Origin: Candidatus Doudnabacteria bacterium
GTDB lineage: Bacteria; Patescibacteriota; Doudnabacteria; UBA920
Assembly: GCA_003151625.1 (NCBI GenBank)
Contig: PLYC01000026.1
Coordinates: 5,552-49,118, forward strand
Length of the DNA stretch: 43,567 bases
Direction: 5' to 3'
The position numbers were made by a program, and so were the translations under genes. The notes below the pieces were generated by a model. That model did no database searches, was not told where the DNA came from, and was given only the letters and a program-made list of their open reading frames with translations. Positions within the stretch are counted from its first letter, which is position 1. Each line of letters begins with the position of its first letter. Shown here piece by piece: positions 23,485 through 30,923 of this stretch.

Positions 23485-23823
23485 GTGGCTTGGAAAAAAT
23501 CGTATGAGTTAGTGTTAGAGGTTTACAAATTAACCGAGAAGTATCCAAAACAGGAAATATTTGGGCTAACTAGTCAGAGCAGACGGTGTGGAGTATCTAT
23601 TCCTTCTAATATTGCCGAAGGGTTTAGAAGAAGGACAGTAAACGATAGTTTGCATTTTTATAATATTTCTCAAGGTTCACTGGAAGAATTACGCTATCAG
23701 ATGATCTTGGCAAGGGACTTAGGTTATATTACGAAAGGGGAGTACGAAAAAATTAGTTTGCTCGCGGAAGAAGCCAGTAAGGTTTTGAATGGCTGGATTA
23801 AATCACAGGGCAAAGTTGCTTAG
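23485..23823 (+). CDS. Four-helix-bundle protein (S23/IVS family), N-terminus broken by a stop codon
   Basis: The product WKKSYELVLEVYKLTEKYPKQE...LTSQSRRCGVSIPSNIAEGFRR...FYNISQGSLEELRYQ is the four-helix-bundle family encoded in 23S rRNA intervening sequences and as free genes in many CPR. Members normally start M-x-IKSF-K-DL-x-VW. Here ATG 23458, with a good SD (AAGGAG), reads MPIKSF and then TAA at 23476-23478 before DIVAWKKS in the same frame. So the original start is cut off by a nonsense codon, possibly a lysine codon changed to TAA. Translation could restart at GTG 23485, giving 112 aa that keep nearly the full fold; otherwise it is a pseudogene. The gene is flanked by 12-bp inverted repeats (TAAGCCAATAAG). 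Confidence 0.75.
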   Translation: MAWKKSYELVLEVYKLTEKYPKQEIFGLTSQSRRCGVSIPSNIAEGFRRRTVNDSLHFYNISQGSLEELRYQMILARDLGYITKGEYEKISLLAEEASKVLNGWIKSQGKVA

Positions 23824-24697: not shown

Positions 24698-24703
24698 TTT
24701 AGG

Positions 24704-24760
24704 ATGTCAAAGGTGCTCTTTGACATCGCGAAAACCAAATGTCAAAGAACACCTTTGACA
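24704..24760. repeat. TGTCAAAG inverted repeat
   Basis: GTCAAAGGTGCTCTTTGACAT (24704-24724 region) and ATGTCAAAGAACACCTTTGAC (24740-24760) are reverse complements with one mismatch, and each half is itself nearly palindromic. It looks like a dispersed intergenic repeat. The rest of 24761-25222 holds the NrdR-controlled promoter and a word-repeat palindrome. Confidence 0.65.
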
Positions 24761-24864
24761 CTCTAGATAGTAGATTTGCCCGGCAAGAGTATTTTTTTAT
24801 TTTTTTTGTGGATATCTCTTTCTCCAAGGTGACAGTTTTTAAAAATGCTAAGCATTTAGGGGTC

Positions 24865-24893
24865 TTGAAAAAAACTATATGTAGTATTATAAT
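24865..24893 (+). promoter_or_regulatory. Promoter of nrdR-nrdJ
   Basis: TTGAAA (24865-24870), a 17-bp spacer and TATAAT (24888-24893). The start of transcription would fall near 24900, giving a leader of about 320 nt before nrdR. An NrdR box fills the spacer and a second lies just after the start. Confidence 0.75.
24872..24887. promoter_or_regulatory. NrdR box 1 (promoter spacer)
   Basis: AAACTATATGTAGTAT fits the known NrdR-box pattern C-w-A-T-A-T-n-T-w-G at its core (CTATATGTAG, 24875-24884). It lies between the -35 and -10 boxes, so bound NrdR would exclude RNA polymerase. Confidence 0.7.
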
Positions 24894-24904
24894 AATATAG
24901 GTAT

Positions 24905-24920
24905 CCACTATATCTAGTGG
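24905..24920. promoter_or_regulatory. NrdR box 2 (just downstream of the start site)
   Basis: CCACTATATCTAGTGG contains the core CTATATCTAG. Its centre is 33 bp from the centre of box 1, about three helical turns, the same-face spacing expected of paired NrdR boxes. Confidence 0.75.
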
Positions 24921-25119
24921 ACAAGTCCATTCGGGGAAATCCAAACAAAAATACAAAAAGGCCGGAAATTTTAGAAAACCCATAAAATATAGGCTTTTAC
25001 ATAATTGTTTATTATATCCTGTCCGCAGGGGTTGTTAAAGATTCGCCAAATTATAGTAAATTAATAAAATAAGGTTTTTAATTTAAGTTTATCGGAGGGT
25101 TTAAAAAGTTTACTTATTA

Positions 25120-25215
25120 TAAATTGGATACTAATAGATATTAAGATATTGATAGATTTGTTTATAACCTATTAATATCAACTAATATCTTAATATCCCA
25201 ATATCTTTCCTAGAA
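25120..25215. repeat. Word-repeat palindrome (GATATTAA) before nrdR
   Basis: ACTAATAGATATTAAGATATTGATAG on the left is answered by CTATTAATATC, ACTAATATCTTAATATC and CAATATC on the right. It ends within 10 bp of the nrdR ATG. Confidence 0.6.
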
Positions 25216-25222
25216 TACAATT

Positions 25223-25669
25223 ATGAGATGTCCCAACTGCCAAAATGAAGATACTAAAGTGCTGGACAGCCGGCCGGTGGATGATGGCGGCGCTATTCGT
25301 AGGCGAAGGGAGTGCGAGAAGTGCGATTTTCGCTTTTCCACTTATGAGGAAATAGAAATATTGGACTTGGCAGTTATAAAAAAGGACGGCAGCAAACAGG
25401 CCTTTTCCAAGGAAAAGCTGGAGAGGGCAATAAGGCTACCTATGGACAAACGGCCTCACACCGACGAAACCTTCCGTAAGTTGGTAGCGGCAATAGAAAT
25501 AGACATCCAGAAAAAAGCCAAAGACGGGGAAATCAAGAGCGCGGATATTGGCGATATAGTTATGAAGAAGCTCAAACGAGCGGACAAAGTTGCCTACATC
25601 CGCTTTGCCGCAGTCTACAGACAGTTCGAGGATGTAGAGGAGTTTAAAGAGGAACTTAAAAAGTTATAA
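25223..25669 (+). CDS. nrdR: Transcriptional repressor NrdR
   Basis: NrdR, the ATP/dATP-sensing repressor of ribonucleotide reductase genes. The N-terminal zinc ribbon has Cys3-x-x-Cys6 and Cys31-x-x-Cys34 with the family string RPVDDGGAIRRRRECEKC; the ATP-cone follows (about 49-139, VIKKDGSKQAFSKEKLERAI). 148 aa is the normal length. Two NrdR boxes overlap the promoter about 300 bp upstream, so autoregulation of nrdR and nrdJ is likely. nrdJ starts 120 bp downstream on the same strand; the gap contains a long hairpin that may lower read-through. Confidence 0.96.
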   Translation: MRCPNCQNEDTKVLDSRPVDDGGAIRRRRECEKCDFRFSTYEEIEILDLAVIKKDGSKQAFSKEKLERAIRLPMDKRPHTDETFRKLVAAIEIDIQKKAKDGEIKSADIGDIVMKKLKRADKVAYIRFAAVYRQFEDVEEFKEELKKL

Positions 25670-25671
25670 CC

Positions 25672-25757
25672 TACAGTTTACGAAGTACGAACAGGTACGA
25701 ACTTACGAAGTTTGTCCGTTCGTAAGTTCGTAAAATTTCGTACTTCGTAAAGTCCTC
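25672..25757. repeat. Near-perfect nested hairpin of TACGAA words
   Basis: TTTACGAAGTACGAA (25677-25691) pairs perfectly with 25737-25751, and inside it TACGAACTTACGAA (25696-25709) pairs perfectly with 25719-25732. The whole 75-nt gap is one hairpin made of a single repeated word. It could modulate nrdR-to-nrdJ read-through. Confidence 0.8.
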
Positions 25758-25789
25758 ACAAAATAAAACCATTAATTATATCTAATACC

Positions 25790-28513
25790 ATGCAATCCAA
25801 ACCAAACCTTCAAACCAGAACAACCAACGCACTCTCTGAACTTGGGGAAAAAATATTTTTAGACCGCTACGCGGTTAAAGATATAAAGCGCGAAACTTTG
25901 GCCGTGGGCGACACGGTGGTGGTTTTGGTAAATCCAAAAACCGGCCAGCGGGAAATTGGGGTAATTGAAAATTTAAATTTAGAAACCCGCGAAGTCAGCG
26001 TGCGCATGCGCGACGGCCAAATTGAGTACAGGACAATTGAGCACGTGGACAAACCGCTGGAGCTGGCCCCTGAACAAATGTTTGACCGGATTGCCAAACA
26101 TATTTCCAGTGTGGAAAAAACCGCTGACAAAAGAACCGAATGGGAAGATAAATTTCGAAAGCTGATGGATGACTGGAAATACGTTCCGGCCGGAAGAATT
26201 TTTACCGGCGCCGGTACCGGACAAAACCTAACCTTTTATAATTGCTTTGTTATTCCGCATCCCAAGGACAGCCGCCACGGAATTTTTGAGACCCTGGGGC
26301 AAATGGCGGAAATTATGTCCCGCGGAGGAGGAGTGGGGATTAACGTTTCTTCTTTGCGTCCGCGTTACGCCTACGTTAAGGGCGTTAACGGCAGAAGCAG
26401 CGGCAGTGTGTCTTGGGCGTCGCTTTACAGTTTTGTAACGGGATTAATTGAGCAGGGCGGCTCCCGCCGCGGCGCGTTAATGCTTATTTTAAATTGCTGG
26501 CATCCGGACGTCATAGATTTTATTAATTCCAAAAAGGAAGCGGGAAAAATAACCAATGCCAATATCTCCGTGGGGATTACCGACGATTTTATGGATGCGG
26601 TAAAAAATGACAAGCCGTGGGATTTGATTTTCCCCGACACTTCCGACGAGCTTTATGCCACCAAATGGGACGGGAACATTAAGCGCTGGCAGTCTTTGGG
26701 CGGTAAAGTAGTTAAACACAAAACCGTGCGTGCCGCCGACATTTGGGATAATATTATTTCTTCGGCCTGGGGCAGCGCCGAACCGGGGATGTATTTTATA
26801 GATCGCGCCAACTACTACAGCAACTCCTGGTATTTTGCCGACTTGCCCTGCACCAACCCCTGCGGCGAACAGCCTCTGCCGGCCTGGGGCGTCTGCAATT
26901 TGGGACACGTAAATTTATCCAAACATATTAATAAAACCACGGGCGAAGTTATGTGGAACGAACTTAAGCAGACCGTGCAATACGCCGTGCGTTTCCAGGA
27001 CAATGTAATAGACGCTACCCCGTACTTTTTTGACGAAAATAAAAATCAGCAAATGTCCGAGCGCAGAGTCGGTATGGGCACCATTGGCCTGGCCGAAATG
27101 ATGATATACAAAGGAGTAAAATACGGCAGTCCCGAAGCCGTGGAATTTATAGACAAGCTTTATCAGTTTATAGCGGTTACGGCTTACGAAACTTCCGTGG
27201 AGCTGGCGCGCGAAAAAGGCGCCTTTCCGGAATTTGTGGCGGAAAAATTTTTGGAGTCCGGTTATATGAAGGCCATGCCCCCGTATATTCGGGACTTGGT
27301 TTACAAATACGGTATCCGCAACGTGACAATTTTAACCCAGGCGCCAACGGGAACCGTTGGCACTATGGTGGGCACCAGTACGGGCATTGAGCCGTTCTTT
27401 TCCTGGACGTATTTTCGTAAGAGCCGTCTTGGCGTGCACGAAGAAAAAATTAAGCTGGCCCAGGATTGGGAGGCCTTGCACCCGGGACAAGAGTTGCCAG
27501 ATTATTTTACCACCGCCATGGAACTTATGCCGGAAGAACACGTGCGTGTCCAGGCCGCGGTTCAGCGCTGGACAGACAGCGCCATTAGCAAAACCTGCAA
27601 CGCGCCATCAAACTACACAATTGAACAAACCAAACAGCTTTATACAATGATGTACGATTTGGGATGCAAAGGCGGAACTATTTATCGCGACGGCTCGAGA
27701 GACGAACAAATTTTGGCAACCGATCATACTAAATTAGGGAAAGACGCTTCCGATCAGGTTGTGGCAAAGCAGGACGCGGATAGCGCTGCTAAAAATTTGG
27801 AAGACAAAGCCATGGCATTATCAGCTAATCCAAAAGAAGTAATGTCAGTATCCGGGGACAAAGTACAAATTAAATTTGCGCCAAGAACAAGACCCGACGC
27901 GATGCAGGGGATAACTTATAAAATGAATACCGCTTATGGTAATTTATATGTCACTATAAACGAGGACGGCCAGGGCCCATTTGAGGTTTTTGCCGCAATG
28001 GGCAAAGCCGGAGGCTTTTTTAGCGCCCAAACCGAGGCCATTACCAGAATGATATCTTTAGCGCTTCGGTCTAACGTGGCCATAGAAGAAATTATTTCAC
28101 AGCTCAAAGGAATTCGCGGACCGGACGTTTCTTTTTCCGACGGCGGCGTGGTGTTTAGTTTGCCGGACGCGATTGCAAAAATTTTGGAAAAGCATATTAA
28201 ACGCAACGACAAACAGTTAACTTTAGACCTGCCTTCTGCGGAAGGCCGCTCCTCGACTTCGCTCGGGGTTTCGGACGCTTCGCGTCCTCAAGAACTAAAA
28301 TTAGAAATCGACACGGTCTCGGAAGAAAAAATGGTACAAACCATTAGTGAAGAAAAAATAAAGAGCAACGGCACATTAACCTACAAAAAAACGCAAAAAA
28401 TTTCCATTGCTAACCTCGGCAACGCCCCGGTCTGTCCCTCCTGCGCCAATATGATGATCCTCGCCGAAGGATGCATGAAGTGTGATTTTTGTGGCTATAG
28501 TAAGTGCGGTTAG
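25790..28513 (+). CDS. nrdJ: Ribonucleotide reductase, class II (adenosylcobalamin-dependent)
   Basis: Makes dNTP precursors with a thiyl radical generated by adenosylcobalamin, so no oxygen or second subunit is needed. Active-site residues fit: Cys152 (FYNCFVIPH), Asn356-Pro-Cys358-Gly-Glu360 (NPCGEQPLP) and Cys369 (GVCNLGHVNL). The substrate and phosphate loops are clear (ILTQAPTGTVGTMVGTSTGIEPFFSWTY, shown here in part by QAPTGTVG). The C-terminus has the TSCPD-type domain and a cysteine tail (CPSC...C..CGYSKCG) for re-reduction. The length, 907 aa, is usual for the large NrdJ form. Residues about 814-834 are encoded by an inserted REP-like repeat. The gene lies behind NrdR and its boxes, and a corrinoid adenosyltransferase follows. 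Confidence 0.96.
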   Translation: MQSKPNLQTRTTNALSELGEKIFLDRYAVKDIKRETLAVGDTVVVLVNPKTGQREIGVIENLNLETREVSVRMRDGQIEYRTIEHVDKPLELAPEQMFDRIAKHISSVEKTADKRTEWEDKFRKLMDDWKYVPAGRIFTGAGTGQNLTFYNCFVIPHPKDSRHGIFETLGQMAEIMSRGGGVGINVSSLRPRYAYVKGVNGRSSGSVSWASLYSFVTGLIEQGGSRRGALMLILNCWHPDVIDFINSKKEAGKITNANISVGITDDFMDAVKNDKPWDLIFPDTSDELYATKWDGNIKRWQSLGGKVVKHKTVRAADIWDNIISSAWGSAEPGMYFIDRANYYSNSWYFADLPCTNPCGEQPLPAWGVCNLGHVNLSKHINKTTGEVMWNELKQTVQYAVRFQDNVIDATPYFFDENKNQQMSERRVGMGTIGLAEMMIYKGVKYGSPEAVEFIDKLYQFIAVTAYETSVELAREKGAFPEFVAEKFLESGYMKAMPPYIRDLVYKYGIRNVTILTQAPTGTVGTMVGTSTGIEPFFSWTYFRKSRLGVHEEKIKLAQDWEALHPGQELPDYFTTAMELMPEEHVRVQAAVQRWTDSAISKTCNAPSNYTIEQTKQLYTMMYDLGCKGGTIYRDGSRDEQILATDHTKLGKDASDQVVAKQDADSAAKNLEDKAMALSANPKEVMSVSGDKVQIKFAPRTRPDAMQGITYKMNTAYGNLYVTINEDGQGPFEVFAAMGKAGGFFSAQTEAITRMISLALRSNVAIEEIISQLKGIRGPDVSFSDGGVVFSLPDAIAKILEKHIKRNDKQLTLDLPSAEGRSSTSLGVSDASRPQELKLEIDTVSEEKMVQTISEEKIKSNGTLTYKKTQKISIANLGNAPVCPSCANMMILAEGCMKCDFCGYSKCG
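28235..28292. repeat. REP-like repeat inside nrdJ, in frame
   Basis: The coding segment contains TCCTCGACTTCGCTCGGGGT at 28250-28269, identical over 20 nt to 40192-40211 inside another gene, with GAAGG/CTTCG-type palindromic ends. It adds the Ser/Arg-rich linker EGRSSTSLGVSDASRP between the reductase core and the C-terminal tail. Confidence 0.7.
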
Positions 28514-28518
28514 TGGTC

Positions 28519-28625
28519 GCGGAAGAAAGCGGAATTTAACGCGGAAAGGAGCGGAAGCTAGGTGTCCTTTCTCCCCCTTTGGGGGAGATGTCCCGAATGC
28601 ATCTGAGGGACAGAGAGGGTGCAGT
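28519..28625. repeat. Composite intergenic repeat after nrdJ
   Basis: 28519-28560 copies the CGCGGAA repeat of 3881-3922 (36/42 by eye). Next to it, TCTCCCC CTTT GGGGGAGA forms a hairpin within a CTCCCCC...GACATC/GATGC-type dispersed repeat (about 28563-28620). No gene is visible from 28514 to 28717. Confidence 0.6.
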
Positions 28626-28677
28626 TGTTTGCTGATTATCTGCAATATAAGAAATAAATATAACTTTATAGTAACAA

Positions 28678-28704
28678 GGCGGGCGGCTGTACCAGCCGCC
28701 CGCC
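28678..28704. terminator. 12-bp GC-rich hairpin
   Basis: GGCGGGCGGCTG (28678-28689) pairs perfectly with CAGCCGCCCGCC (28693-28704) across a 3-nt loop. There is no long T-tract on either side, so its role is unclear; it may reinforce termination of the minus-strand gene. Confidence 0.4.
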
Positions 28705-28717
28705 TAAAAAGTATATT

Positions 28718-28758
28718 AAAAAAGTTGTACCGCCGAATCCCGATGTGGGTTCCGGCGG
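28718..28758 (-). terminator. Terminator of the small minus-strand membrane gene
   Basis: On the minus strand CCGCCGGAACCC and GGGATTCGGCGG (28730-28758) pair with two mismatches, and T6 follows (28718-28723). Confidence 0.6.
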
Positions 28759-28771
28759 CAACAGGCAATGG

Positions 28772-28969
28772 TTACGGTTTGTCAGTCATCCGCCGACGAA
28801 AGCTGTATATCGGCAGGTAGAGGAAGAAATATGCGCACACAATGACTGGTCCAATTATTGGGTGGGCAAAGGCGCTCAAGGCTGCGCAACCGATGGCTAG
28901 CAGGGGATATCCCCATTTGAAATTTGGGTTTATCGCGTTGCCGAAATACCATTTCCAAACTTTTAACAT
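28772..28969 (-). CDS. 65-aa membrane protein, unknown
   Basis: On the minus strand, SD GGAGG lies about 5 nt before ATG 28969. The 65-aa product has a basic N-terminus and one or two hydrophobic segments (about residues 20-52, PLLAIGCAALSAFAHPIIGP and VIVCAYFFLYLPIY) and ends in the basic SFRRRMTDKP. A terminator follows, so this is likely a real single-gene unit. It sits opposite in direction between nrdJ and the corrinoid adenosyltransferase, and nothing ties it to cobalamin. No family recognised. Confidence 0.6.
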   Translation of the reverse strand: MLKVWKWYFGNAINPNFKWGYPLLAIGCAALSAFAHPIIGPVIVCAYFFLYLPIYSFRRRMTDKP

Positions 28970-29013
28970 GTATCCTCCATTCAGAACGACGTTAGGCTTA
29001 ATTTTATCACTAA

Positions 29014-29640
29014 ATGCCTAAAACAAAAAAAATCCAAATCCCTAAAACCTTTTCCGACGAGCCTAAGGGCTTGGTGATTTGTTATATTGGGGTGGGGAAG
29101 GGGAAGACCACGGCGGCTATGGGCATGGCGGTAAGGGCTTCGGGCGACGGGAAAAATGTTTATATTTTACAGTTTGTAAAAGCAGGCAATAAATCGGACA
29201 GCCAAATTAAAGACGGCGAGTGGCCGGTATCATCGGAAATTAATTTTTTTGATAATGTATCTTACGGCCACAACATCGGTAAAATAGAAAATGAACAAGT
29301 CGGCCTTGGCTTTGTGGGCATACTGGGCGATAAAAAAGAAAAAGACATCCACATTCGCCAGGCATTAAAAGGGGTTGAAAGGGCGCGGGAAATTATAACA
29401 TCGGGAGAATATGATTTGGTAATCCTCGATGAAATAATTTCCGCGCTGGAAGTCGGGCTTTTGGAAGAACGGGACATAATCGATCTTATTAAACTAAAAG
29501 CGCCTCTCCAGCACTTGGTAATAACCGGCCACAATAAATATCCAAAAATTTTAAAACTCTGCGACCTGGTTACGGAAATGAAAATGATCCAGCATCCGTA
29601 CTACAAAGGAATTTTGGCGCAGAAGGGGATAGATTACTGA
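29014..29640 (+). CDS. btuR: Corrinoid adenosyltransferase (CobA/BtuR type)
   Basis: Transfers the adenosyl group of ATP to reduced corrinoid, making the adenosylcobalamin that NrdJ needs. The P-loop GVGKGKTT is at residues 26-33 with the family start YIGVGKGKTTAAMGMAVRA, then ILQFVKAG, then VILDEIISALEVGL (Walker-B-like, about 136-150) and LVITGHN. 208 aa is close to the usual 190-200. The residues marking the CobA/BtuR family rather than PduO or EutT are clear. No corrin ring synthesis genes are seen, so this is a salvage step. Next genes on the same strand are a DUF4430 lipoprotein and an ECF-S-like protein. Confidence 0.93.
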   Translation: MPKTKKIQIPKTFSDEPKGLVICYIGVGKGKTTAAMGMAVRASGDGKNVYILQFVKAGNKSDSQIKDGEWPVSSEINFFDNVSYGHNIGKIENEQVGLGFVGILGDKKEKDIHIRQALKGVERAREIITSGEYDLVILDEIISALEVGLLEERDIIDLIKLKAPLQHLVITGHNKYPKILKLCDLVTEMKMIQHPYYKGILAQKGIDY

Positions 29641-29776
29641 GCCGCTGATTTGTCGCCGATAGGGACGCTGATATGGCGCTGAATCTATAAGTGTCTATCC
29701 CGGAATTTTTTACCGTTGGTGGATTATAAAAGTCGGTAAAAAATATCCCTGCCTGCGGCAGGCGGGCGGGATTCAG
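29641..29776. repeat. CGCTGAT word repeat and palindrome
   Basis: GCCGCTGATTTGTCGCCGATAGGGACGCTGATATGGCGCTGA is built from one word that also appears at 34428-34470. TTTTTTACCG (29705-29714) and CGGTAAAAAA (29733-29742) pair, and a CCTGCCTGCGGCAGGCGGG palindrome follows. They may form the terminator of the adenosyltransferase gene. Confidence 0.5.
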
Positions 29777-29787
29777 AACCATAGAAA

Positions 29788-29816
29788 TTGACAATAAGCT
29801 ATTAACAAATTAAAAT
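29788..29816 (+). promoter_or_regulatory. Promoter for the DUF4430 lipoprotein, leaderless position
   Basis: TTGACA (29788-29793), a 17-bp spacer and TAAAAT (29811-29816). The start of transcription would be at about 29823, i.e. at or next to the ATG at 29825. Confidence 0.6.
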
Positions 29817-29824
29817 CAGAAGGT

Positions 29825-30373
29825 ATGAAAAAGTTTTTTATATTATCGGCAACATTATTTTTGTTGGCTGCGGGTTGCGGAAAGCAAGGGGTTCAGCAGA
29901 GAGCCCCCGGTACAGATGACACCAATTTAGAGCAAAGTTCAAACCAACCATCGACACAGGCCGTCTCCGCCCCGACTTCAACCCCGATTGGAAACAAAAA
30001 GAATACTAAGACCTTGCCTAGAATAAGTTTGGTTCACCCGGGCGGCCTGCAGGGAATTAGTGTCGAACAGTCCGTTGAAGGCGCTTATGTAACCGTAGCT
30101 GGTTCAAAATTCACTAATGTAAGTTACACTGTAGATGTTGGAATTACCGCTTTAGACCTTTTAAAAATCTCCTATAAGGTTACCGCTAAAGATTACGGCG
30201 CGGGTATGGGTGAGTTTGTGGAAACAATCGACGGTATAAAACCGGACAGCCAACATTTTTGGGCGTTTTATGTTAACGGAAAATCTTCCAATGTTGGCGC
30301 ATCATCGTACAAACTTGAAGCCAACGACAACATTGAATGGAAGCTCGAAGCAATAAGCTCATCGGGACAATAA
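29825..30373 (+). CDS. DUF4430 (transcobalamin-C-like) lipoprotein
   Basis: 182 aa. A lipoprotein signal peptide ends in LAAGC with lipid-bearing Cys18, followed by a Ser/Thr/Pro-rich linker (20-70). Residues about 80-178 match the DUF4430 pattern: an ITALDLLK strand-helix, ETIDGI, FWAFYVNGKSSNVGASSYKL and NDNIEWKLEAI. DUF4430 is related to the C-terminal domain of transcobalamin/intrinsic factor, which contacts the corrin. So this could be a surface cobalamin-binding protein, consistent with the adenosyltransferase upstream and ECF-S-like gene downstream. Binding has not been shown for this protein, and DUF4430 also occurs in other extracellular proteins. It has its own TTGACA/TAAAAT promoter. 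Confidence 0.85.
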   Translation: MKKFFILSATLFLLAAGCGKQGVQQRAPGTDDTNLEQSSNQPSTQAVSAPTSTPIGNKKNTKTLPRISLVHPGGLQGISVEQSVEGAYVTVAGSKFTNVSYTVDVGITALDLLKISYKVTAKDYGAGMGEFVETIDGIKPDSQHFWAFYVNGKSSNVGASSYKLEANDNIEWKLEAISSSGQ

Positions 30374-30410
30374 AATTTTAGAAATTAGGATATTAAGAAA
30401 TAAAGAAATT

Positions 30411-30923
30411 ATGCTGATATATATAGTAATCATCTCAGCGGTTATTACCCGGTTCATTCCCCATATGCCAAACCTAGCGCCAATAACGGCGCTGGCTATT
30501 TTTAGCGGAGCTTATTTGCCAAAGAAGCAGGCGGTGGGCATAACTTTGGCCGCGCGTTTTATTAGCGACGTTTTTCTGGGTTTCTTTTCTTGGCCGCTTA
30601 TGGCCGCGGTTTACGCTTCACATTTGGTTGGCGTTTTGTTTGGGTTCTGGATAAAGAAAAATGAAAATCATCGCTGGACTAAAATTTTCACTTCTTCCCT
30701 CGGCGTATCGCTGATATTTTTTCTTGTCACCAACTTCGCCTTTTTTTACGGCACTTACGATCATAATCTAACGGGCATAATCGCGGCTTATACAAACGGC
30801 CTGCCGTTTTTTCGCGGTACATTGCTCGGGGATTTAGGCTACACGTCCGTACTGTTTGGTTCCTTTGAATTTGTTAAATGGTTTTTATCCCAAAGGTCAA
30901 AATTCCTAATTCCTAATTCCTAA
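30411..30923 (+). CDS. DUF6580/ECF S-component-like membrane protein
   Basis: 170 aa with five to six hydrophobic helices. The motif RFIPHMPNLAPITALAIFSG at the end of helix 1, then GAYLPKK, RFISDVFLG and a C-terminal GLPFFRGTLLGDLGYTSVLFG pattern fit DUF6580, a family close in size and style to substrate-binding (S) components of ECF vitamin transporters. No energising genes (ecfA, ecfT) are in the window. Its position after the DUF4430 lipoprotein (37 bp) and the corrinoid adenosyltransferase makes cobalamin a plausible cargo; this is inference from context. Confidence 0.8.
   Translation: MLIYIVIISAVITRFIPHMPNLAPITALAIFSGAYLPKKQAVGITLAARFISDVFLGFFSWPLMAAVYASHLVGVLFGFWIKKNENHRWTKIFTSSLGVSLIFFLVTNFAFFYGTYDHNLTGIIAAYTNGLPFFRGTLLGDLGYTSVLFGSFEFVKWFLSQRSKFLIPNS

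What the first reader, a model, noticed from the sequence alone, without database searches (positions are those of the whole stretch)
24865..30923. Putative cobalamin capture-activation-use module around nrdJ
Seen: nrdR and nrdJ (B12-dependent RNR, active-site Cys152, Cys358, Cys369) followed by a corrinoid adenosyltransferase (P-loop GVGKGKTT), a lipoprotein with a DUF4430 domain and a DUF6580 ECF-S-like membrane protein. Known: DUF4430 is related to the C-terminal corrin-contacting domain of transcobalamin; BtuR makes the NrdJ cofactor. Inference: the last two proteins form a surface-binding and import pair for scavenged corrinoid in a cell that cannot make it. No ecfA/ecfT or btuFCD is in the window, so the energising part would be elsewhere or shared.
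Basis: partly seen in the sequence, partly recalled or inferred. Interest (0 to 1): 0.78.

Follow-up and report, generated by a model that had tools for sequence, protein, structure and literature searches.

The report
Vitamin B12 scavenging module beside nrdJ
A tiny Patescibacterium that cannot make vitamin B12 carries, next to its B12-dependent DNA-precursor enzyme, a surface protein related to the human B12 carrier transcobalamin and an uncharacterised membrane protein shaped like known B12 transporters, which very probably capture and import B12 without the usual ATP-driven machinery.

Summary
In detail: nrdR, nrdJ, btuR, a DUF4430 lipoprotein and a DUF6580 membrane protein lie in that order on the + strand. 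The corrinoid-import reading, only a guess from sequence, is now strongly supported. (1) The DUF4430 profile and model match the transcobalamin, intrinsic-factor and haptocorrin beta domain. (2) The DUF6580 profile hits one protein in the whole PDB, the 182-residue chain of the ECF-CbrT (B12 transporter) entry; its confident model best matches BtuM, a solitary B12 S-component, with cobalamin bound. (3) In 153 genomes of the phylum, 36 of 37 DUF6580 genomes carry DUF4430, adjacent in 31. (4) Half of the cobalamin riboswitches found precede DUF4430 genes. (5) Genomes lacking nrdJ but having the pair still carry another B12 enzyme. (6) Outside the phylum DUF6580 sits beside BtuB, BtuG-like, BtuF-like or MetH genes. 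Most likely DUF6580 is a solitary S-component fed by the lipoprotein, with BtuR trapping the product. Binding and transport are untested. A new variant of a known kind; DUF6580 has no literature in the library searched.

The parts
24906..24919 (.). NrdR-box-like palindrome CACTATATCTAGTG, about 300 bp upstream of nrdR
   Evidence: exact match to CACWATATHTWGTG, a pattern written from memory of NrdR boxes; function inferred only
25223..25669 (+). nrdR, transcriptional regulator of ribonucleotide reductase
   Evidence: TIGR00244 177.9 bits, Zn ribbon and ATP-cone
25790..28513 (+). nrdJ, class II adenosylcobalamin-dependent ribonucleotide reductase
   Evidence: TIGR02504 587 bits; best PDB match 1XJE, E 2.5e-72, catalytic cysteines aligned
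29014..29640 (+). btuR/cobA-type ATP:corrinoid adenosyltransferase
   Evidence: PF02572 173.9 bits; PDB 4HUT and 1G5R, E about 3e-20
29825..30373 (+). DUF4430 (transcobalamin beta-domain-like, SLBB) surface lipoprotein, proposed corrinoid-capture protein
   Evidence: PF14478 63.4 bits; family profile hits transcobalamin-1, intrinsic factor and transcobalamin-2; all 19 fold matches with E below 1e-3 are transcobalamin-type beta domains or the DUF4430 structure 3U7Z
30411..30923 (+). DUF6580 S-component-fold membrane protein, proposed solitary B12 transporter
   Evidence: PF20221 146 bits; family profile's only PDB hit is 6FNP chain A; model pLDDT 94.3 best matches BtuM-cobalamin structures

Best explanation
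The locus is a B12 capture, import, activation and use module. SHOWN by comparison: the DUF4430 lipoprotein has the cobalamin-contacting beta domain of transcobalamin; DUF6580 has the fold of ECF S-components, nearest to the B12-specific ones (CbrT by sequence, BtuM by structure); BtuR and NrdJ are a corrinoid adenosyltransferase and an AdoCbl-dependent reductase; no EcfT, recognisable BtuC or CobS was found in the genome. INFERRED: the lipoprotein, anchored outside the membrane, captures scavenged cobalamin or cobinamide and hands it to the extracellular face of DUF6580 (conserved R14, H18, N21, D53, N108, Y116). DUF6580 moves it inward as a solitary S-component without an ATPase, and adenosylation by BtuR followed by binding to NrdJ traps it, as proposed for the btuR-linked solitary transporter BtuM. 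Within this I hold corrinoid uptake at about 0.9, and the ATPase-independent solitary mode with BtuR trapping at about 0.6.
For: Profile of 30 DUF6580 proteins against the PDB: one hit, 6FNP_A, E 1.1e-5; 6FNP is the ECF-CbrT vitamin B12 transporter (PMC5997447). DUF6580 model, pLDDT 94.3: best fold matches BtuM with hydroxycobalamin and with cyanocobalamin, both probability 1.00, then HmpT, FolT, ThiT, BioY and RibU (the Foldseek E-values are weak, 0.01 to 0.05). DUF4430 profile against the PDB: transcobalamin-1 6e-6, intrinsic factor 1e-5, transcobalamin-2 beta domain 6.5e-4; fold search agrees. The isolated human beta domain binds cobalamin and cobinamide (PMC5599065). Co-occurrence in 153 genomes: 36 of 37 DUF6580 genomes have DUF4430 (p 2e-29); 31 of 37 within 5 kb on the same strand, 23 within 10 kb of BtuR or PduO, 20 within 10 kb of NrdJ. 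Cobalamin riboswitches: 15 of 30 lie 231-1111 bases upstream of a DUF4430 domain. Exceptions without TIGR02504 RNR: G006, G138 and G068 have the other AdoCbl RNR (TIGR02505 type) and G022 a B12-binding radical SAM protein directly next to the pair. Outside the phylum: BtuB, DUF5074/BtuG-like, BtuF-like and MetH neighbours. EcfT in 1 of 153, CobS in 0 of 153, and no NrdD and no second RNR large subunit in this genome. BtuM precedent for solitary transport and btuR trapping: PMC6072759.
Against: No binding or transport data. The window has no detectable cobalamin riboswitch, even at E up to 10. Solitary CbrT, the closest sequence relative, did NOT support growth without its ECF module (PMC5997447), so relatedness to CbrT argues against solitary function. 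DUF6580 lacks the invariant cysteine that BtuM needs. Many BtuR- or PduO-bearing genomes of the phylum (57 of 90) lack DUF6580, so another B12 route must exist there and might exist here. A divergent ATPase or T-component partner below PF02361's reach is not excluded. G040 and G057 have the pair but no adenosyltransferase was found.
Confidence: 0.82

Rival explanations
1. Corrinoid import by the pair, but energised: DUF6580 is an S-component that docks on an unrecognised, divergent ECF-like T-component or recruits an ABC ATPase elsewhere in the genome.
For: CbrT, the nearest sequence relative, needs its ECF module (PMC5997447). The SLBB (DUF4430) operons of Gram-positives contain CbiO/CbiQ genes (PMC1796856).
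Against: PF02361 rings in 10 of 14 control genomes and in one genome of the phylum but not in this genome or any of the other 151. No such gene was seen beside the pair in the neighbourhoods read. The AxxxA motif in TM1 (known to me as the EcfT contact of group II S-components) is present in only 3 of 30 DUF6580 proteins.
Confidence: 0.2
2. The pair imports corrinoid precursors or analogues (cobinamide, other cobamides) rather than, or as well as, cobalamin.
For: CbrT, BtuM and the transcobalamin beta domain all bind cobinamide (PMC5997447, PMC6072759, PMC5599065).
Against: CobS, needed to finish cobinamide into a cobamide, is absent from all 153 genomes, so cobinamide import would be of no obvious use.
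Confidence: 0.12
3. DUF4430 and DUF6580 serve a different ligand (for example cobalt, heme or another cofactor) and are near nrdJ and btuR only by operon history.
For: Some SLBB relatives were suggested to bind other ligands (PMC1796856). S-components as a fold class carry many vitamins.
Against: Cobalamin riboswitches precede the pair in many genomes. The pair is followed by a B12 radical SAM enzyme where nrdJ is missing, and DUF6580 follows btuB outside the phylum.
Confidence: 0.05

Closest known systems
ECF-CbrT of Lactobacillus delbrueckii (nrdJ-cbrS-cbrT-pduO cluster; PDB 6FNP)
   Same: B12 S-component in a cluster with nrdJ and a corrinoid adenosyltransferase; distant sequence homology of DUF6580 to 6FNP chain A (E 1.1e-5)
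   Different: CbrT requires EcfA/A'/T; no EcfT here. BtuR instead of PduO. DUF6580 is a separate Pfam family. What cbrS encodes was not found, so whether it is a DUF4430 protein is unknown.
BtuM (Thiobacillus denitrificans; PDB 8OVV, 8C7P)
   Same: Solitary S-component fold, best fold match; gene linked to btuR; host without an ECF module
   Different: BtuM has an invariant, essential cysteine (Cys80); the window DUF6580 has no cysteine at all. No DUF4430 partner is described for BtuM in the paper read.
Transcobalamin, intrinsic factor and haptocorrin beta domain; SLBB superfamily, transcobalamin-like clade (Pfam DUF4430)
   Same: Homologous beta-grasp domain by profile and by fold; predicted in 2007 to scavenge B12 in bacteria (PMC1796856)
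   Different: The window protein is a membrane-anchored lone beta domain without the alpha/alpha toroid; toroid-DUF4430 proteins do occur in relatives
BtuB-BtuG-BtuCDF uptake of Gram-negative bacteria
   Same: Surface capture followed by inner-membrane import; in Ignavibacteria and Bacteroidota DUF6580 itself sits beside BtuB, BtuG-like or BtuF-like genes
   Different: No outer-membrane receptor and no BtuCD in the window; the capture protein is transcobalamin-like instead of a BtuF or propeller protein

Membership tests
DUF4430 / SLBB transcobalamin-like clade | Pfam PF14478 above its curated cut-off | tested here: met
   63.4 bits against 23.8
DUF4430 / SLBB transcobalamin-like clade | Beta-grasp fold of the transcobalamin beta domain | tested here: met
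   domain modelled with pLDDT about 90; 5NO0 TM 0.75 by target length, E 3e-5, probability 1.00
DUF4430 / SLBB transcobalamin-like clade | Secreted or membrane-anchored | tested here: met
   N-terminal hydrophobic stretch and lipobox-like LAAGC in the window protein; relatives have a lipobox-like site or an N-terminal hydrophobic helix (read by eye)
DUF4430 / SLBB transcobalamin-like clade | Binds corrinoid | not testable with these tools
   needs a binding assay
Complete transcobalamin-type protein | Alpha/alpha toroid joined to the beta domain | tested here: not met
   182-aa protein with one domain; toroid-DUF4430 proteins exist only in relatives
ECF S-component fold | Six-helix S-component fold | tested here: met
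   model pLDDT 94.3; the top three fold matches are S-components, TM 0.58-0.61
ECF transporter (group II) | EcfT (PF02361) in the genome | tested here: not met
   none in this genome; 1 of 153 in the phylum sample; controls ring in 10 of 14
ECF transporter (group II) | AxxxA motif in TM1 for EcfT contact (recalled from memory) | tested here: not met
   3 of 30 members; absent in the window protein
CbrT | Significant sequence similarity to the 6FNP chain | tested here: met
   profile E 1.1e-5, the only PDB hit, covering 111 of 180 profile positions
CbrT | Dependence on an ECF module | tested here: not met
   no EcfT gene available in the genome
BtuM | Invariant cobalt-ligand cysteine (Cys80) | tested here: not met
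   the window protein has no cysteine; none among the conserved columns
BtuM | Solitary operation and link to btuR | tested here: inconclusive
   no EcfT in the genome and btuR is two genes upstream; activity not tested
NrdJ (class II RNR) | TIGR02504 above cut-off and catalytic cysteines | tested here: met
   587 bits; Cys152, 358 and 369 aligned to 1XJE
BtuR/CobA | PF02572 above cut-off and GxGKGKTT P-loop | tested here: met
   173.9 bits; P-loop aligned to 4HUT; below the stricter TIGR00708 equivalog cut-off (147.2 against 167.75)
Cobalamin riboswitch regulon (RF00174) | Riboswitch at this locus | tested here: not met
   none in the window; present upstream of DUF4430 in 15 relatives

The most novel reading that the evidence does not exclude
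A two-protein, ATPase-free B12 importer widespread in Patescibacteria, in which a membrane-anchored transcobalamin beta domain and a solitary S-component (DUF6580) together form a composite corrinoid site: the membrane protein plays the part that the toroid domain plays in animal transcobalamin, and uptake is driven only by adenosylation and enzyme binding inside the cell.
Probability: 0.35. Interest if true: 0.78.

Novelty: new variant of a known kind. Interest (0 to 1): 0.62.

Why it matters
Many Patescibacteria depend on AdoCbl-dependent ribonucleotide reductase, yet none of the 153 sampled has CobS, only one has EcfT and none has a convincing BtuC, so how B12 gets in has been open. This assigns a probable function to DUF6580 (no paper found in the library searched), extends the 2007 SLBB prediction to an ultra-small phylum with riboswitch support, and gives a compact system for testing whether S-components can import without ATP. 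It also adds a bacterial setting in which the domain that animals use to carry B12 is paired with a membrane transporter.

Tried and rejected
FecCD (BtuC) matches were rejected as cross-hits: all at most 44 bits, most below the cut-off. The one EcfT genome (G045) lacks DUF6580. The first broad alignment was too diverse for a genome scan, so a six-member alignment was used. Weak Rfam matches in the window were dismissed: none is a cobalamin riboswitch, and they match small-RNA families or repeats near 24700. The DUF6580 hit in G107 was dropped (19.9 bits, below cut-off). Literature on DUF6580 gave nothing, nor did CPR with B12 uptake, and the identity of cbrS could not be settled. A histidine (H18) as cobalt ligand was considered and left as a guess: it is nearly invariant (105 of 109), but one of the two scan patterns required it.
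Full report
OBSERVATION. Gaps between coding regions are 120 bp (nrdR-nrdJ), 500 bp (nrdJ-btuR), 184 bp (btuR-DUF4430) and 37 bp (DUF4430-DUF6580). NrdJ scores 587 bits on TIGR02504, and its cysteines 152, 358 and 369 align with the conserved cysteines of T. maritima NrdJ. BtuR aligns with the solved adenosyltransferase 4HUT including the P-loop. The lipoprotein has a lipobox-like LAAGC and one PF14478 domain, and the membrane protein is PF20221.

GENOME. The window lies in a 1.5 Mb, 34-contig genome rated 100% complete. This placement is an inference.

WHAT THE LIPOPROTEIN IS. A profile of 30 DUF4430 domains from the phylum finds transcobalamin-1 (6e-6), intrinsic factor (1e-5), the isolated transcobalamin-2 beta domain (6.5e-4) and the bacterial DUF4430 structure 3U7Z in the PDB. 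The AlphaFold model is poor in the linker but confident in the domain. All 19 Foldseek matches with E below 1e-3 are transcobalamin, intrinsic-factor or haptocorrin structures or 3U7Z. That DUF4430-type proteins scavenge B12 in bacteria was predicted in 2007 (PMC1796856). The isolated human beta domain was crystallised with cyanocobalamin and with cobinamide (PMC5599065).

WHAT THE MEMBRANE PROTEIN IS. A profile of 30 DUF6580 proteins has exactly one PDB hit at E up to 10: 6FNP chain A, E 1.1e-5. 6FNP is the ECF-CbrT vitamin B12 transporter (PMC5997447); that chain A, a 182-residue 'membrane protein', is the CbrT S-component is my inference. The AlphaFold model (pLDDT 94.3) matches BtuM bound to hydroxycobalamin and cyanocobalamin best (probability 1.00 each, TM about 0.6), then S-components for other vitamins. 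The Foldseek E-values (0.013, 0.049) are weak on their own; the weight lies in the agreement of two methods on B12-specific S-components. Conserved polar residues (R14, H18, N21, D53, N108, Y116) fall in or beside the loops after helices 1, 3 and 5, which positive-inside charge places outside (loops 2-3 and 4-5 carry the positive charge), where S-components bind substrate.

CO-OCCURRENCE. In 153 genomes sampled across the phylum, 37 have DUF6580; 36 of these have DUF4430 against 4 of the other 116 (Fisher p 2e-29, phylogeny not corrected, but the hits span more than 25 families). In 31 of 37 the two lie within 5 kb on the same strand, mostly within 300 bp. 33 of 37 have a BtuR or PduO adenosyltransferase; 23 of 37 have one within 10 kb and 20 have nrdJ within 10 kb.

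Five DUF6580 genomes lack an above-cut-off TIGR02504 reductase. G006 and G138 carry the other AdoCbl-dependent reductase (best NCBIfam family TIGR02505, 293 and 308 bits, below its 340-bit cut-off but with the B12-RNR insertion domain), in the same neighbourhood as PduO and the pair. G068 has a 393-aa fragment of the same enzyme. G022 has neither reductase nor adenosyltransferase, but the pair is followed directly by a B12-binding radical SAM protein. G014 is 81% complete with a weak DUF6580 hit and a PduO gene. So no clear pair without a B12 enzyme was found.

REGULATION. Cobalamin riboswitches were found in 30 genomes; 15 lie 231-1111 bases upstream of a DUF4430 domain on the same strand (binomial p about 1e-34 under random placement, a rough model). 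Two more (G112, G040) precede secreted proteins that resemble DUF4430 by eye. None is detectable in the window.

OUTSIDE THE PHYLUM. The genome scan returned DUF6580 loci from Ignavibacteria, Bacteroidota, a deltaproteobacterium and Thermomonas. They lack adjacent DUF4430, but in most the neighbour is a TonB receptor. Two of these receptors were tested and match BtuB best. Other neighbours are DUF5074 propellers, one of which matches BtuG-type structures weakly, a BtuF-like binding protein just upstream (L179), and B12-dependent methionine synthase directly downstream (L206). That DUF5074 and the PDB entries are BtuG proteins is my own knowledge. This ties DUF6580 to B12 independently of nrdJ.

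HOW IT GETS ENERGY. EcfT occurs in 1 of 153 genomes, not this one. FecCD matches are weak throughout. CobS is absent from all. This genome shows a single RNR large subunit and no anaerobic NrdD, so it appears to depend on imported corrinoid for DNA precursors. BtuM, also without an ECF module, supports B12 uptake, and trapping by BtuR has been proposed for it (PMC6072759). Against this, solitary CbrT did not support growth. I therefore put the solitary mode at about 0.6.

NOVELTY. The parts resemble known kinds (S-components CbrT and BtuM, SLBB/transcobalamin domains, nrdJ-adenosyltransferase clusters). The combination, namely DUF6580 as a B12 S-component without an ECF module and paired with a transcobalamin-like lipoprotein in Patescibacteria, was not found in the literature library. 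It is a new variant of a known kind.

Noticed in passing
L136 (G097:C90), L138 (G083:C2), L148 (G090:C6): A cobalamin riboswitch precedes a 720-850 aa protein without any Pfam match, followed by a ClpB/Cdc48-like AAA+ ATPase, in three genomes of the phylum. The three long proteins are not detectably similar to one another.
   Followed up: partly
L139-L147, L149, L150: Further cobalamin riboswitches precede Pfam-less, apparently cytoplasmic proteins (some with Zn ribbons), in several unrelated families, mostly in genomes without DUF6580. A B12-controlled function in Patescibacteria that is not an obvious transporter.
   Followed up: partly
L101, L102, L103, L093, L104, L105, L106, L107, L108, L111: Secreted alpha/alpha-toroid plus DUF4430 proteins (transcobalamin-like architecture) occur in relatives, in several genomes between the small DUF4430 gene and DUF6580.
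   Followed up: partly
window 24700-24770: Strong inverted repeat (GATGTCAAAG...TTTGACATC type) between the upstream gene and nrdR; several weak Rfam hits pile up on it.
   Followed up: no
window 23485-23823: A 23S rRNA-intervening-sequence / four-helix-bundle protein gene just upstream, with weak similarity to the Avd protein of diversity-generating retroelements.
   Followed up: no
window 28772-28969 (- strand): Small ORF of 65 aa with two hydrophobic stretches in the unusually long nrdJ-btuR gap; may be a real small membrane protein or chance.
   Followed up: no
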